In this document: positions 10,528-14,484 of the stretch, piece after piece
Numbering within the stretch: position 1 is the first letter of the stretch
How the letters are laid out: each line of letters starts with the position of its first letter
Translations under genes and position numbers: made by a program
Notes under the pieces: generated by a model
The model's database searches: none
Seen by the model: the letters and a program-made list of their open reading frames with translations, nothing else
What the model was told of the DNA's origin: nothing
Assembly (NCBI RefSeq): GCF_039541115.1
Contig: NZ_BAABFP010000002.1
Coordinates: 930,001-994,000 of the forward strand
Source of the DNA: Angustibacter luteus
GTDB taxonomy: Bacteria; Actinomycetota; Actinomycetes; Actinomycetales; Angustibacteraceae
Length of the DNA: 64,000 nucleotides
Direction of reading: 5' to 3'

Positions 10528-11925
10528 TCAGACGGTCAGCACGCCCCCCTCGAAGGCTTGCTGCGTCCCGCCGCCGTCCACCGCGGTCGCCGGTCCCACG
10601 GGGTATCCCCACCGGCCCGTCTCCGCGCCGTCCTGCTTCCAGCGGGTGAAGACCGCGCCGGTCACGGACTGCGTGGTCGTGCTCGTGGTGTCCGCGATCA
10701 CGCCGCGCTCGAAGTACTGGATCCACCGGTCGCTGCTGACCACGCGGTCCTTGACCGGGAACCCCAGGGCGCTCTTCTCGCCGCCCAGCGCCTTCCAGAC
10801 CGTGTAGGAGGTGCCGCTGAGGTAGGCGGTCACCGAGCTGGTCGTGTCCGCGATCACGCCGTGCTCGAAGTACTGGATCCACCGGTCGCTGCTGACGACG
10901 CGGTTCGTGATCGGGTAGCCGAGCACCCCGGAGTAGCCGCCCAGCTGGCGCCAGCGGCCGTACGCGACGCCGAGCACCAGGGCGGTCGCCGAGCTGGCGG
11001 TGTCGGCGATCCCGCCCTTGTCGAAGTACTGGACCCACTTGCCGGACGTCACCACCTTGTCGCCGCGCGGGTAGCCCAGGCTCCCCCGCTCGCGGCCCTG
11101 GGCGACCCACACGGTGTAGGCGTAGCCGAAGACCGCGTGCGCCCCGTTCTCGGGCCGCCAGCTGATCGCTCCGTGCTGGTAGTTCACGTACTTGCCGATG
11201 CCGTCGCCGACCGCGCGGTCAGGTCCGGTGGACGCGCCCAGGGGCGAACCCAGCGACCCGAGCGCGTCGTACTTGCGCGAGATCGGGCTGCACCCCTGCA
11301 GGCACGGCGCGTTGTGCTCCGCCGTCGCGTTGTCGCTGAGCGAGGTCGTGGTGCAGTTCGCCCACTTGTACGGCGCCACGCAGCTCACCACCCGGCAGGC
11401 CACCCCGCCACTGCACTTCACGTGCGTGTTGCACTGCCCGTAGCGGAAGGCGTTGCAGCACACCCGACGCTGGTCGCAGGTGGACTTGGAGCCGCACTTG
11501 CAGCTGCAGCTCCAGCAGCCGGAGCTGCAGATGTTGTCGTCCGAGCAGCCCGACGTGCACTTCGAGCAGCTCGCGTTGCAGTCGGTGATGTAGCGGTAGC
11601 CGCCGCAGCACCACGACGAGTCGGCAGCCTTCCACCAGCCGGCCGCGAACGTGCCGGGCGGGCAGGCGTTGACGCCCTTGTTGATCGTGCAGCACATCAC
11701 CGTGTAACCCGCCGCGCACGACGCGGCCGGGCCGCACCCCACGGCGGCGGAGGCGGTCATCGGGGTGAGCACGTAGTTGCGTGGGTCGACGACGATCGCC
11801 GACCCGACCACCGCCGTCCGCACGAGGAAGCCGCGGCGGCTGAACCGGCCCAGCCGGTTCGAGACCCGCTCGACCAGTCGCATCGTGGGGCTGCTGGCGG
11901 TCGTCGCCTCCTGCAGGGTGGTCAC
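10528..11925 (-). CDS. Tat-exported cysteine-rich MauA-like protein with LGFP repeats
   Basis: A 465-residue protein in three parts. Residues 1-60 hold a twin-arginine signal (SRRGFLV at 29-35). Residues 64-212 carry 26 cysteines. They include a CPPGT block (88-92) with W97/W98 close behind and a later W188 followed by C191, reminiscent of the methylamine dehydrogenase small subunit, where two tryptophans form the TTQ cofactor. From about 222 there are five LGFP-type repeats (LGSP, LGYP, LGYP, LGFP, WGYP), modules known in actinobacterial cell-wall-associated proteins. I infer an envelope redox or structural protein matured by the MauE- and MauD-like neighbours. No heavy chain or MauG is nearby, so amine oxidation is unproven. 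Confidence 0.7.
   Translation of the reverse strand: MTTLQEATTASSPTMRLVERVSNRLGRFSRRGFLVRTAVVGSAIVVDPRNYVLTPMTASAAVGCGPAASCAAGYTVMCCTINKGVNACPPGTFAAGWWKAADSSWCCGGYRYITDCNASCSKCTSGCSDDNICSSGCWSCSCKCGSKSTCDQRRVCCNAFRYGQCNTHVKCSGGVACRVVSCVAPYKWANCTTTSLSDNATAEHNAPCLQGCSPISRKYDALGSLGSPLGASTGPDRAVGDGIGKYVNYQHGAISWRPENGAHAVFGYAYTVWVAQGRERGSLGYPRGDKVVTSGKWVQYFDKGGIADTASSATALVLGVAYGRWRQLGGYSGVLGYPITNRVVSSDRWIQYFEHGVIADTTSSVTAYLSGTSYTVWKALGGEKSALGFPVKDRVVSSDRWIQYFERGVIADTTSTTTQSVTGAVFTRWKQDGAETGRWGYPVGPATAVDGGGTQQAFEGGVLTV
10688..10904. repeat. Near-identical 61-base blocks inside the LGFP region
   Basis: Positions 10688-10748 and 10844-10904 differ at only two of 61 bases. They are offset by exactly 156 bases (52 codons), the length of one LGFP unit. 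The other units have diverged much further, so two units were duplicated recently or kept alike by gene conversion. Confidence 0.85.
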
Positions 11926-12401
11926 GGCAGGGCTCCTGTCCGCAGCATCTCGGTCCTGCTGGCGACCCGCACCGACCGCACCATCGCCTGCGCCCGAGGC
12001 ACGGTCGCCATCCGCCGCGAGTGCGCCCCGAGGACGACGAACAGGCAGAACGCCCGACCACCCTCGGAGAAGAAGTGCTGGGCCGCGCTGACTCCGGGGT
12101 AGGACCGGGCCAACCGGTTCGTGGCGAACTGCGACGGCCGCAGCGCCGGCCGGCCCTGCCGCGCGAACAGGCCCTGGTCGGCCACCTCGGTGCCGTAGTC
12201 GATCAGCGAGACGAAGACGTCGTCGGCGCCGAGCAGGTCGATCACCCCCGAACCGAAGTCCCCTCGGACGGCGGGCAGCGGCCGGGTGCAGGCGTGCAGC
12301 ACCGGGTGGGTGACCTCGTCGGCGCCCAGCGGCTCGCGGCGGAAGACCCGTGTCTCCCAGCCGTGCTCGGCCGGCACCGTCAACCCGTACCTGGACGCCA
12401 T
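11922..12401 (-). CDS. Unknown soluble protein of the Mau-like cluster
   Basis: I do not recognise this 159-residue protein. It has no signal peptide or membrane helix, two cysteines (about residues 38 and 120), and blocks such as DDVFVSLIDYG and PSQFATNRLARSYPG that look folded and globular. I chose the ATG at 12401, which has GGAG six bases upstream and lies two bases past the preceding stop; an ATG at 12413 is possible. Its stop overlaps the start of the cysteine-rich Tat protein (ATGA). It may be a cytoplasmic maturation factor or chaperone for that protein, which is inference from position only. Confidence 0.6.
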   Translation of the reverse strand: MASRYGLTVPAEHGWETRVFRREPLGADEVTHPVLHACTRPLPAVRGDFGSGVIDLLGADDVFVSLIDYGTEVADQGLFARQGRPALRPSQFATNRLARSYPGVSAAQHFFSEGGRAFCLFVVLGAHSRRMATVPRAQAMVRSVRVASRTEMLRTGALP

Positions 12402-12403
12402 CG

Positions 12404-13000
12404 TCAGCTCCATCCCGAGGCGACCACGACGGTCGCGGTCAGCACCAGCGCGCCCCGCGCCAGCCGGTCCACCGGTCGGGCCCAGCGGTCGAGCCGGGCG
12501 AAGAACCGGTGCAGGTCACCGGGCGAGTGCACGCCGTGCAGCGCCAGGATCGGCAACCCGCGGGCCACCCCGAAGACCAGGCCGAGCAGGAGCCCCACCC
12601 ACAGCTGTCCCGACCACGCCGCCAGCAGCAGCACCGCGTACACCGTCGAGCTGGTGACGATCGTCATCACCCCGGCACCGAGCTGCAGACCGAAGCCCAG
12701 GCCGTAGACCCAGCCGCGGTAGCGGGTCAGCCACGCCTCGTCGACCTGGCGCTTCCAGGACGGCAGGCCGTGCCCGCGGGCCCGCAGATCCAGGGCCAGG
12801 CCGACCAGCACCCCGATCGCCACGAGCACCGCGGCGGCCACCGAGTCACGCCAGGACGCCGGCAGCGCGCTGCCCAGGGCAGCGGCCAGCGTCCCGGCGA
12901 CCGCACCGCCGACCAACGACCCGACGAGGTAGGCGGTGACGGTCAGTCCCCACCGGGCACCACGGGCCCGCTCACCGAGCGGGCTGATGCTGGACAGCAT
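12404..13000 (-). CDS. Six-helix membrane protein of the Mau-like cluster
   Basis: A 198-residue protein with about six hydrophobic helices and glycine-rich stretches (GLGFGLQLGAG, GLVFGVARGLP). The layout recalls CcdA/DsbD-type transmembrane electron carriers, but it lacks the paired cysteines they need, so it cannot be called one. AGGTGAG, from the end of the small upstream reading frame, serves as its ribosome-binding site. A role as a membrane partner of the MauD/MauE-like proteins is inferred from the operon. Confidence 0.6.
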   Translation of the reverse strand: MLSSISPLGERARGARWGLTVTAYLVGSLVGGAVAGTLAAALGSALPASWRDSVAAAVLVAIGVLVGLALDLRARGHGLPSWKRQVDEAWLTRYRGWVYGLGFGLQLGAGVMTIVTSSTVYAVLLLAAWSGQLWVGLLLGLVFGVARGLPILALHGVHSPGDLHRFFARLDRWARPVDRLARGALVLTATVVVASGWS

Positions 13001-13009
13001 CGACTCACC

Positions 13010-13090
13010 TCAAGGTGACCAGGTCGAGCGCACCGCGGCCACGAGGGCCAGCGGCAGCCCGACGACGACGGCGACGAGCTGGGGGGTCAT
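13010..13090 (-). CDS. 26-residue single-helix membrane peptide
   Basis: An ATG at 13088-13090 overlaps the stop of the MauD-like gene (ATGA). It opens a 26-codon frame starting MTPQLVAVVVGLPLA and ending in RSTWSP: one hydrophobic helix with a short positively charged end. The TGA is followed directly by AGGTGAG, which is the ribosome-binding site of the six-helix protein gene. Coupling on both sides suggests it is really translated. It could be a small subunit or a regulator of the membrane complex. It may only be a coupling frame, and no homologue is known to me. Confidence 0.45.
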   Translation of the reverse strand: MTPQLVAVVVGLPLALVAAVRSTWSP

Positions 13091-13932
13091 GGCTGACCCG
13101 GCTCGTCGTCCGGTGGACCGGGGTTCTCGTACATGCTCTGGTGACCCGGGTGGATCCCGGCCCCCAGCAGCTCACGGTCGATCCGGGCCAGATCCGCGTA
13201 GTCCTGCAACGGGTCCAGCCCACCTGCGCCGGCCCCGGGCCCGATCGGGCCCGGTCCGGTGCGGCCCGCGCGGCGACGCGCGTCCGCGGTGTCCGCGACC
13301 GCCTGGCCCATCAGGTCGCGCACCTGGGCCCAGGTGGTCGACGAGCCCTCGCCGGTGATCAGTCCGTCCTCGACGTACACGAAGTACGGCGAGCCGGGCA
13401 CGCCGTAGTCGGTCCAGACCGCATCGGACTGGACGACCTCGAGCCGGTCCCGGGCCAGGTCGCGCAGCCGCGACACGCTCTCCTCCTGAGGACCCTTGGT
13501 CACGACGACGAGCCGGCCCTGGCCGGGGACGTCCGGCGTTCCGACGGACAGCTCGTCCCAGAAGGTCTGGCAGACCGAGCACCCGCTCGACAGGAACGCC
13601 AGCAGGGTGCGCCGCCCACCACCGGCGACGGGGATGGTCACCTCGTCGCCGTCCAGCGTCGTCCCGATCACCGCGGCCGCCCGGACGCTGGCCGGGCGGG
13701 TGGCCGGCATGATGCCGGTCTCGAGGTCGACGTCCACCGGGCCGGTGCCGGATCCGTGCTGGTGCGCGGCCTCCCCCGCCGCACCCGCCGTCGCGCCGGG
13801 CTTCTCGAGGTCGAGGCCGGCACCCAGCTCGTGCAACGCGCGCAGGATCAGCGCGTGGCTGCGGAGCAGGCCGACCACGAGCAGGGCGAGCAGCGCGATG
13901 GCCGCACCTTCGGCGACGACGACAGCGAGCAC
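13087..13932 (-). CDS. MauD-like membrane-anchored thioredoxin-fold protein
   Basis: A 281-residue protein with an N-terminal membrane anchor (about 5-25), a linker, and an extracytoplasmic thioredoxin/TlpA fold with the redox pair CSVC (C118, C121) in LAFLSSGCSVCQTFW. A cis-proline is in GVPGSPYFVYV. The C-terminus carries a glycine/proline-rich tail. MauD proteins help form disulfides in the methylamine dehydrogenase small subunit. Here the obvious client is the 26-cysteine protein of the same operon. It begins three bases after the MauE-like gene and its stop overlaps the small peptide gene. Confidence 0.8.
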   Translation of the reverse strand: MLAVVVAEGAAIALLALLVVGLLRSHALILRALHELGAGLDLEKPGATAGAAGEAAHQHGSGTGPVDVDLETGIMPATRPASVRAAAVIGTTLDGDEVTIPVAGGGRRTLLAFLSSGCSVCQTFWDELSVGTPDVPGQGRLVVVTKGPQEESVSRLRDLARDRLEVVQSDAVWTDYGVPGSPYFVYVEDGLITGEGSSTTWAQVRDLMGQAVADTADARRRAGRTGPGPIGPGAGAGGLDPLQDYADLARIDRELLGAGIHPGHQSMYENPGPPDDEPGQP

Positions 13933-13935
13933 GGA

Positions 13936-14484
13936 TCAACCTCTCTGCGGGGCGGTGGCCGAGCGCACCGCGCTCGGGGTGACGGTGGGCAGGACGGCGA
14001 TGACCAGGTAGCTCAGCCAGGTGAGCAGGACGGCGAAGCCGAGGACGGCGACGGCCAGCGCCGGGTCGTCCGTCGCGGCCGCCCACCAGGTGCCCGCGGG
14101 CGGGTCGAGCGCCACCGCGACGCCGGACGCCGCCAGCAGGCCGGTGACCACGAGATGCGCTCGGGTGGGTGGGGTGTCCGGGCGGCCGAAGCAGCCACAG
14201 GAACCGAGGACCCCGCCGCGGGACAGGGCCAGGGCGACGAAACCGGTGAACACGAGGTAGGCGACCGCGACCAGGACGGCGGTCAGCCGGCCGGGGCGCA
14301 CCAGGGCCAGGACGCCCCCGAGCACCTCCGCGGCGGCCGCGGCGCGGACCGGCGTGCGCCCGGCCGGCAGTCCGACGGAGCGGACCGCCCGGACGAGCGG
14401 CAGTGGATCACGCAGCTTGGGGAGGCCGGCCAGGACCAGCAGCACGGCGGCCGCCAGGTAGGCGCAGACGGCGATGTTCCCCAT
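13936..14484 (-). CDS. MauE/DoxX-like redox-associated membrane protein
   Basis: A 182-residue membrane protein with four to five helices. It has the MauE signature LPKLRDP after the first helix and a conserved SCGCFG cysteine motif after the third. MauE works with MauD in making disulfides in the exported methylamine dehydrogenase small subunit, probably by passing electrons to quinone or a DsbB-like route. I start at the ATG giving MGNIAVCAY; the frame is open to 14547, but that stretch overlaps the end of map and lacks conserved residues. It is the first gene of the cluster. Confidence 0.8.
   Translation of the reverse strand: MGNIAVCAYLAAAVLLVLAGLPKLRDPLPLVRAVRSVGLPAGRTPVRAAAAAEVLGGVLALVRPGRLTAVLVAVAYLVFTGFVALALSRGGVLGSCGCFGRPDTPPTRAHLVVTGLLAASGVAVALDPPAGTWWAAATDDPALAVAVLGFAVLLTWLSYLVIAVLPTVTPSAVRSATAPQRG

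What the first reader, a model, noticed from the sequence alone, without database searches (positions are those of the whole stretch)
10528..14484. Mau-like redox cluster inserted between map and infA
Between map and infA, usually adjacent in actinobacteria, lie five annotated genes plus a 26-codon frame, most coupled by ATGA overlaps. They encode MauE-like and MauD-like proteins, a six-helix membrane protein, an unknown soluble protein and a Tat-exported 26-cysteine protein with LGFP repeats. The parts needed to export, oxidise and anchor a redox protein are together, but mauB and mauG are absent. It may be an envelope system with a new maturation route.
Basis: partly seen in the sequence, partly recalled or inferred. 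Interest (0 to 1): 0.78.

Follow-up and report, generated by a model that had tools for sequence, protein, structure and literature searches.

The report
Selenocysteine-containing Mau-type folding gene cassette
A five-gene cassette widespread in actinobacteria seems to fold an exported, densely disulfide-bonded protein, and one of its membrane proteins (MauF), which looks like two separate frames, is probably a single undescribed selenoprotein.

Summary
(1) The 'six-helix protein' is a homologue of MauF, a methylamine dehydrogenase maturation factor (hhalign 98.6%, E 1e-15). (2) The '26-codon frame' is its N-terminus: its TGA (13012-13010) is in frame with the next ORF, exactly where MauF has cysteine. 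In 66 readable members the codon is TGA in 58 and Cys in 8. A hairpin follows in 78 of 89 TGA forms and 0 of 15 Cys forms. tRNA-Sec occurs in 9 of 9 cassette genomes tested; the own genome has SelA and SelB; in six loci selA or selB lies directly beside the cassette. This is very probably a selenoprotein; it is absent from a 2026 table of 119 families. The Cys-rich domain has an even Cys count in 77 of 79 relatives, with cysteines lost in pairs: probably fully disulfide-bonded. Kinship to MauA is plausible but weak; a TTQ quinone is unlikely. Best model: a MauD/E/F-Sec pathway for oxidative folding of an exported client. Nothing has been tested experimentally.

The parts
13936..14484 (-). mauE-like gene, membrane protein with invariant CxC (SCGCF)
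   Evidence: Pfam MauE 1.5e-15; C96 and C98 invariant in 43 rows including Paracoccus MauE
13087..13932 (-). mauD-like gene, membrane-anchored thioredoxin-fold protein with CxxC (GCSVC)
   Evidence: TIGR02661 1e-4, below cut-off; C118/C121 invariant in 41 rows including Paracoccus MauD
12404..13090 (-). mauF-like gene read as one 228-residue frame with Sec27 at the in-frame TGA; otherwise seen as a 26-codon frame plus a six-helix protein
   Evidence: hhalign to MauF E 1e-15; in-frame reading; conservation of WSP-UGA/Cys-G
13010..13012 (-). TGA codon proposed to be read as selenocysteine
   Evidence: 58 TGA, 8 Cys, 0 TAA/TAG in 66 readable family members
12986..13001 (-). hairpin 1 after the UGA (GATGCT-N4-AGCATC), SECIS-like
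   Evidence: 6 bp invariant in 45 of 45 aligned; 5-bp core in 78 of 89 TGA forms, 0 of 15 Cys forms
12966..12984 (-). hairpin 2 with a GGU apical loop, SECIS-like
   Evidence: GG-loop hairpin of 5 or more bp in 76 of 89 TGA forms and 1 of 15 Cys forms; two pairs with changes on both sides
11922..12413 (-). orfX, soluble protein without an evident signal peptide, Mog1/PsbP-like fold predicted; a second possible start is at 12401
   Evidence: AF2 pLDDT 94.6; VIA-align best Z 6.8, LpqN 5.8, EagT6 5.1, PsbP 4.9
10528..11925 (-). exported Cys-rich client with LGFP repeats
   Evidence: LGFP 5.1e-29; 26 Cys, none in the LGFP part
11746..11925 (-). twin-arginine-like signal region of the client (SRRGFL)
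   Evidence: by eye; TIGR01409 13.5 bits, below its cut-off of 16.7
11287..11742 (-). Cys-rich domain (GWWK, R-Y-x-x-D-C, FRYGQC motifs)
   Evidence: 80-sequence alignment A2; AF2 pLDDT 92.3
10531..11286 (-). LGFP repeats, probable cell-wall anchor
   Evidence: PF08310; phmmer match to PS1 chains 6swz and 6sx4

Best explanation
The cassette encodes a dedicated export-and-oxidative-folding pathway. The client is exported (probably by Tat) with a domain of about 8-13 disulfides; here it is probably held at the wall by LGFP repeats. MauD (CxxC thioredoxin fold) and MauE (CxC membrane protein) make and recycle disulfides. MauF, the third Mau maturation factor, is a selenoprotein here: an in-frame UGA at the conserved MauF cysteine is read as selenocysteine with the help of RNA hairpins just downstream, giving MauF a reactive selenol at the end of its first membrane helix that would exchange with MauD/MauE or with client cysteines. 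orfX may act in the cytosol as a client chaperone. Shown by computation: the five-gene linkage, MauF homology, the UGA/Cys alternation with hairpins specific to the UGA form, the Sec machinery, and paired loss of client cysteines. Inferred: actual Sec insertion, redox direction, Tat use, the role of orfX, wall attachment. Kinship of the client to MauA is a weaker inference, about 0.55; the client probably lacks TTQ.
For: MauF homology: hhalign prob 98.6, E 1e-15, 169 columns, 0 of 100 column shuffles reach it. UGA: read without asking for a motif, the codon before the ORF is TGA after an in-frame xxWSP in 58 of 66 readable members; the other 8 have TGC/TGT inside one continuous ORF; a 67th is cut by a contig end. 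Motif count over more MauF loci: 89 TGA, 12 TGC, 3 TGT, 0 TAA/TAG/TGG of 104. 15 of 15 relatives fetched in the order have TGA. Hairpin 1 core in 78 of 89 TGA forms, 0 of 15 Cys forms; the Ser codon in its 3' arm is AGC in 58 of 58 TGA forms and 0 of 5 Cys forms. tRNA-Sec (tca) in 9 of 9 cassette genomes tested, the window's own included; own SelA 418.4 and SelB 265.5 bits, both over cut-off. SelA and/or SelB in the stretch held of 9 of 80 loci, in six of them directly beside the client gene. L161 has CTG, not ATG, where re-initiation would start. Client: even Cys count in 77 of 79; Cys columns co-lost in pairs, phi 1.0 for 11-85, 20-149, 83-98. Co-occurrence.
Against: No experiment and no proteomics. 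TGA is 325 of 350 stops of the cassette genes, so 'always TGA' alone is weak (0.014 for 58 of 58 if independent). GGNGAG before the downstream ATG resembles a ribosome-binding site, so separate initiation is possible. tRNA-Sec is also over cut-off in 4 of 6 genomes of the order without the cassette and in 5 of 14 named controls. Hairpin 1 is invariant in the 45 sequences aligned, so covariation there is untestable; its core is missing in 11 of 89 TGA forms. MauF was not found in 14 of 80 loci, several cut by contig ends; a wider profile tried on 11 of them found none, so MauF is not always needed or not always adjacent. In 10 of 80 loci the client ends within 40 residues of the Cys domain with no contig end to blame, so the LGFP anchor is not universal. 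Client against MauA: 2 of 100 shuffles reach the local profile score and the global comparison gives nothing; Foldseek has no significant match.
Confidence: 0.72

Rival explanations
1. Leader peptide plus re-initiation: the 26-codon frame is a short leader ending at a normal stop, and MauF starts at MLSS by translational coupling; no selenocysteine.
For: GGNGAG-TCG-ATG looks like a ribosome-binding site and start, and is typical of the TGA forms; TGA is 92.9% of the stops of these genes.
Against: The upstream frame is conserved up to the codon (AAxR[SA]xWSP), matches MauF's own STWSPC, and continues as one ORF with Cys in 8 of 66 members. L161 has CTG, not ATG, at that start. The downstream hairpin covers the ATG and was found in no Cys form (0 of 15). 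Sec machinery in 9 of 9 tested.
Confidence: 0.1
2. Amine dehydrogenase-like quinoprotein: the Cys-rich domain is a MauA light chain with a tryptophan-derived cofactor and the cassette is a variant methylamine dehydrogenase.
For: MauD/E/F are the MADH maturation factors; CPPGT and Trp in similar order; the only VIA-align rows with Z>=2 are MADH/AADH light chains; W38, W39 and D56 invariant in 80 of 80.
Against: No PF02975 match in 15 members; none in the genome either (though no control rang there); by an alignment made by eye the second TTQ Trp is an invariant Gln; the two invariant Trp are adjacent; no heavy chain or MauG between map and infA; even Cys counts leave no spare Cys for a Cys-Trp quinone.
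Confidence: 0.1
3. The client is a secreted antimicrobial or RiPP-like product and MauD/E/F are its modifying enzymes, as proposed for mauE/mauD clusters in Streptomyces (decRiPPter).
For: decRiPPter reports 3 families with mauE, one also with mauD, each with a predicted precursor of at least 8 Cys (PMC7794033, passages).
Against: Here the client is a 465-aa protein with LGFP repeats, as in 15 of 15 cassette relatives of the order; no transporter or protease family stood out among neighbours, in a clustering of limited sensitivity; paired cysteine loss points to disulfides, which MauD/E/F could suffice to explain.
Confidence: 0.08

Closest known systems
mau cluster of Paracoccus denitrificans (mauR, F, B, E, D, A, amicyanin, J, G ...), methylamine dehydrogenase
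   Same: MauF, MauE and MauD homologues beside a Cys-rich protein with a twin-arginine-like start
   Different: No mauB, amicyanin or mauG between map and infA; client lacks a PF02975 match and carries LGFP repeats; MauF has UGA in place of its SPC cysteine; extra gene orfX
Mau-like cluster in an actinomycete of the same order (L135, G133)
   Same: MauE, MauD and MauF with a TGA at the same cysteine; SelB in the genome
   Different: Its client looks like a MADH-type light chain with both TTQ Trp motifs and a propeller-like lipoprotein follows; no LGFP client and no orfX hit in the stretch
decRiPPter mauE/mauD candidate RiPP families of Streptomyces (PMC7794033)
   Same: MauE (and one MauD) with a Cys-rich gene product
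   Different: Predicted precursor peptide, called a RiPP; neither MauF nor selenocysteine appears in the passages seen
Known prokaryotic selenoprotein families (119 in PMC13188914, Table 1)
   Same: In-frame UGA at a redox Cys with Cys homologues, downstream hairpin, Sec machinery
   Different: MauF is not in the table; the membrane-type entries there (YeeE/YedE, SO_0444 transporter, rhodanese/DsbD fusion TsoB) have other names and motifs
LpqN / PsbP / Mog1 / EagT6 fold proteins
   Same: Predicted fold of orfX (Z 4.1-6.8)
   Different: No sequence family match; middling Z; function not transferable

Membership tests
MauF family | Sequence homology over the membrane core | tested here: met
   hhalign prob 98.6, E 1e-15, 169 columns, 0 of 100 shuffles; not contrasted with a CcdA/DsbD profile
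MauF family | SPC cysteine near the end of an N-terminal helix | tested here: met
   UGA in 58 and Cys in 8 of 66 readable members; met in the window only if UGA is read as Sec
Selenoprotein | In-frame UGA aligned with Cys of homologues, flanks conserved | tested here: met
   89 TGA, 15 Cys, 0 TAA/TAG of 104
Selenoprotein | SECIS-like RNA structure just downstream | tested here: met
   Hairpins in 78 and 76 of 89 TGA forms against 0 and 1 of 15 Cys forms; little covariation to count; no SECIS program was run
Selenoprotein | Sec decoding machinery in the genome | tested here: met
   tRNA-Sec, SelA and SelB in the own genome
Selenoprotein | Selenium in the protein | not testable with these tools
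   needs 75Se labelling or mass spectrometry
Methylamine dehydrogenase light chain (MauA, PF02975) | Match to the family profile | tested here: not met
   0 of 15 members at E<=10; the same library finds Paracoccus MauA at 2e-53
Methylamine dehydrogenase light chain (MauA, PF02975) | Light-chain fold | tested here: inconclusive
   VIA-align Z 2.3-2.5, only MADH/AADH chains pass Z 2 (6 of 52 aligned); Foldseek not significant
Methylamine dehydrogenase light chain (MauA, PF02975) | Two Trp forming TTQ | tested here: inconclusive
   W38/W39 invariant; the position taken by eye as W108 is Gln in 80 of 80
Methylamine dehydrogenase system | Heavy chain MauB and MauG encoded with it | tested here: inconclusive
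   Not between map and infA; neighbour clustering found no such family but recovered MauE and MauD in only 26 of 80 loci each; not searched genome-wide
MauD (TIGR02661) | Score over the equivalog cut-off | tested here: not met
   21.8 bits against 188.6; CxxC kept in 41 of 41 rows
MauE (PF07291) | Score over the gathering cut-off | tested here: met
   58.1 bits against 27

The most novel reading that the evidence does not exclude
MauF is an undescribed, widespread selenoprotein family, and MauD/E/F is a general actinobacterial module for oxidative folding of Tat-type exported, disulfide-dense proteins. Methylamine dehydrogenase's light chain would be one specialised client among several (LGFP wall proteins, a 10-Cys CGHT family and others), with a selenol in the membrane used where the disulfide load is high.
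Probability: 0.6. Interest if true: 0.9.

Novelty: new variant of a known kind. Interest (0 to 1): 0.85.

Why it matters
It would add a membrane selenoprotein family spread across Actinomycetota that ordinary gene finding cuts in two, give the poorly understood MauF a testable active residue, and recast the Mau maturation proteins as a general disulfide-folding route. It makes an old question, what MauD, MauE and MauF do, directly testable in culturable strains by selenium labelling and deletion.

Tried and rejected
Sequence search of the Cys domain against the PDB by profile: nothing relevant (one tail-fibre chain at E 5.6; none). PF02975 in the own genome (none) and in 396 phylum genomes (one weak hit with a stop inside, none over cut-off); no control rang in either, so these do not show absence. 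Global profile comparison of the client with MauA: no signal. Client families B, C and D against MauA or A2: no significant link except B with C (E 1.6e-07) and C with D (E 1.5e-04), C and D being two-sequence alignments. Foldseek on the client: not significant. The 'always TGA' argument was tested against the baseline stop usage and found weak alone. VKOR in the own genome: none. Literature: searches listed, by title and abstract, no paper on a MauF selenoprotein or on this cassette; the library holds only open-licence PMC papers. What I saw of papers: PMC13188914 passages and section 7 parts 1-2 of 3 with all of Table 1; PMC7794033 passages; PMC12013277 passages; PMC9312934 a term search without a hit. 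The rest only as search listings. MauA numbering (W57, W108), the order of the full mau operon and SECIS loop features are recalled.
Full report
What is there. On the minus strand between map and infA the window holds mauE-like 13936-14484, mauD-like 13087-13932, a membrane ORF that begins at 13000, orfX 11922-12413 and a Cys-rich LGFP protein 10528-11925. All 26 cysteines of the last lie in residues 60-213. Pfam recognises MauE (1.5e-15), LGFP (5.1e-29) and, for the membrane ORF, DsbD_2 just over cut-off (26.5 against 24.9 bits). The MauD-like protein hits TIGR02661 only weakly.

One system. The Cys-rich domain was sought in 297 genomes of the order: 18 matched, one of them weak and broken by stops; the profile search found 17. 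OrfX was found in 16 genomes, all among those 17; in the remaining one, G032, the client lies on a 4,466-base contig. MauF-like hits were strong in the same 16 and weak in three further genomes without the Cys domain. Stretches around 16 of the 18 matches were fetched: 15 show the cassette in the same order (one lacks mauE at a contig start, one has a frameshift in the client), and G098, the weak match, gives no hit. The place in the genome varies: only L020 (same genus) has both map and infA in the stretch, and L024 (same family, contig cut) has infA; 13 have neither.

Spread. A scan of one genome per species, by short peptide patterns, found 221 relatives of the Cys domain; the best 80 were kept. 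79 of the 80 titles name actinobacterial groups; L055 is titled Melainabacteria. All five genes lie within 6 kb in 57 of 80: 42 in the order E-D-F-X-Cys, 8 in E-Cys-D-F-X, 7 otherwise. Of the other 23, 14 have the client at or near the start of the contig; 8 lack MauF (L098 and L108 also MauE; some contigs end close by); one, L107, has the client alone. MauF is missing in 14 of the 80 in all; a wider profile tried on 11 of these found none. In 10 of 80 loci the client ends within 40 residues of the Cys domain (L059, L064, L068, L069, L072, L074, L083, L089, L098, L108), so an LGFP tail is not universal; LGFP was matched in 15 of 15 order loci and not scanned in the rest. A clustering of neighbour ORFs named no sixth partner, but it was insensitive: MauE and MauD came out in 26 loci each, orfX in 15, and the next family, in 10, is an antisense frame.

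The membrane protein is MauF. An alignment of 65 members compared with five MauF proteins from named mau clusters gives hhalign probability 98.6, E 1e-15 over 169 columns; 0 of 100 column shuffles reach the score. I did not contrast it with a CcdA/DsbD profile.

The split frame is a selenocysteine codon. MauF reads LLSTWSPCGYSS. In the window the 26-codon frame reads MTPQLVAVVVGLPLALVAAVRSTWSP, then TGA (13012-13010), then in frame GESMLSSISPLGER. For the window and 66 loci I read the codon before the ORF without asking for any motif. In 58 it is TGA preceded in frame by xxWSP; in 8 the ORF runs on upstream and holds Cys there (TGC or TGT; WSPC in five, YSPC in one, SSPC in two); one is cut by a contig end. 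With a motif search over more MauF loci: 89 TGA, 12 TGC, 3 TGT, no TAA, TAG or TGG among 104 (some loci may be the same species). All 15 cassette relatives fetched in the order have TGA. Since TGA makes up 325 of 350 stops of the cassette genes, the absence of TAA/TAG alone is weak evidence.

RNA structure. Right after the UGA lies a hairpin GATGCT-N4-AGCATC, then a second with a GG-starting apical loop. The 5-bp core of the first is present in 78 of 89 TGA forms and 0 of 15 Cys forms; the second (5 bp or more) in 76 of 89 and 1 of 15. The Ser codon in the 3' arm is AGC in 58 of 58 TGA forms and 0 of 5 Cys forms. In 45 of the 58, aligned, helix 1 is 100% paired but invariant; helix 2 is 96.2% paired with two pairs changed on both sides, and the covariation score exceeds all 500 shuffles, a control that ignores relatedness. 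In 8 of the 12 'V' members left out the second hairpin forms in another register (CTCCCC-GGTC-GGGGAG and the like). The GGU-type apical loop fits bacterial SECIS elements as I recall them; no SECIS program was run.

Machinery. tRNA-Sec scores over the Rfam cut-off in 13 of 15 genomes and ARAGORN calls SeC (tca) in the same 13: 9 of 9 with the cassette (of 17 such genomes), 4 of 6 without; 5 of 14 named control genomes also pass. The window's genome has SelA (418.4 bits, cut-off 267.9) about 6 kb from, and SelB (265.5, cut-off 242.25) directly beside, its tRNA-Sec. SelA and/or SelB lies in the stretch held of 9 of 80 loci; in six loci of Phycicoccus, Pedococcus and Knoellia one of them starts within about 110 bases of the end of the client frame, and in three of these tRNA-Sec is there too. 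In L025 the order is tRNA-Sec, selA, selB, then the cassette; L022 has the same SelB neighbour, there at 240.5 bits, just under the cut-off. L161 lacks the ATG that a re-initiation model needs.

The client. Over 79 domains the Cys count runs from 16 to 26 and is even in 77. Variable cysteines vanish in pairs: 11-85 (59 of 59), 20-149 (54 of 54), 83-98 (74 of 74), 81-97 (phi 0.94), 48-153 (0.89), 61-112 (0.72) (domain numbering); 64, 74 and 78 vary together without a clear pair. This is what a fully disulfide-bonded protein would show. The AF2 model is confident (pLDDT 92.3). Foldseek finds nothing significant (best E 4.0; an AADH light chain is rank 6). VIA-align on 52 chains gives six with Z>=2, all MADH or AADH light chains, Z 2.3-2.5, 77-84 residues aligned. 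Profile comparison with MauA/AADH is borderline locally (E 0.0099, 2 of 100 shuffles reach it; with one actinobacterial MauA added E 0.0061, 0 of 50) and nil globally. W38, W39, R52, Y53, D56, F101, R102, Y103, Q105 and R119 are invariant in 80 of 80. Aligned by eye, W39 may match MauA W57 and Q105 the second TTQ tryptophan W108 (MauA numbering recalled), so TTQ looks unlikely. I hold kinship to MauA at about 0.55.

OrfX is predicted with confidence (pLDDT 94.6) as a Mog1/PsbP-like fold, best Z 6.8, with LpqN, PsbP and EagT6 among the matches; Z under 8 can mean only a common arrangement. A cytosolic client chaperone is a guess from the fold and the GTGA overlap.

Wider picture. A MauF profile rings in 71 of 396 Actinomycetota genomes. 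Of 20 weaker MauF places fetched, 13 have on the same strand within 4.5 kb a gene with a twin-arginine-like start and many cysteines, of several unlike families; 7 do not (a regular-expression screen). G133 carries what looks like a MADH-type set whose MauF also has TGA at the cysteine, and a SelB hit just over cut-off (243.3 against 242.25 bits). This suggests, without proving, that MauD/E/F serve a class of exported disulfide-dense proteins. The window's genome has no VKOR match.

Prior art. decRiPPter noted mauE/mauD beside Cys-rich predicted precursors in Streptomyces and called them candidate RiPPs (PMC7794033, passages). A May 2026 inventory of 119 prokaryotic selenoprotein families (PMC13188914, Table 1 read) has no MauF. 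Searches listed nothing on a MauF selenoprotein.

Verdict. Ordinary as a list of genes, but not as a system: a conserved MauD/E/F pathway with a selenocysteine MauF (about 0.9 for the selenocysteine reading, lower for the folding role), serving what is probably a fully disulfide-bonded exported protein.

Noticed in passing
L135:3533-7830 (G133): MauE, MauD, a MADH-type light chain with CEYWRWC / EFWVGCC / IIWCVS motifs, MauF and a propeller-like lipoprotein (by eye): apparently a methylamine-dehydrogenase-like set in an actinomycete; its MauF cysteine codon is TGA (5534-5532) and the genome has a SelB hit just over cut-off.
   Followed up: partly
L180-L185, L195, L199: Another candidate MauD/E/F client family: Tat-like start, 10 Cys, motifs such as CGHTYTTGSCPHP and DCCSxSDTRINGD.
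   Followed up: partly
L187, L189, L190, L193, L198; L137, L138: Further unlike Cys-rich candidates with a twin-arginine-like start beside MauF; in L189, L190, L192 and L194 MauF has TGA at the cysteine.
   Followed up: partly
G000:C8:77131-77523 (L139): The own genome has a second MauE-family gene directly before a DsbA-like gene (FQCPIC, by eye), and no VKOR match: MauE may regenerate DsbA here.
   Followed up: no
L034 (G147): The client gene is split by a frameshift within the Cys domain in one genome of the same order.
   Followed up: no
L107 (MAG YX2bin23): A copy of the Cys-rich domain gene without the four partners in the stretch held, in a MAG that also has a full cassette (L089).
   Followed up: no
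L055: A contig titled Candidatus Melainabacteria carries the cassette with tRNA-Sec, selA and selB nearby: transfer or a binning error.
   Followed up: no
L076, L077, L082, L094, L098, L108, L111, L112: Loci, 5 of 8 titled Acidimicrobiia/Acidimicrobiales, that have the client, MauD and orfX but no MauF found nearby; some contigs end close by.
   Followed up: partly
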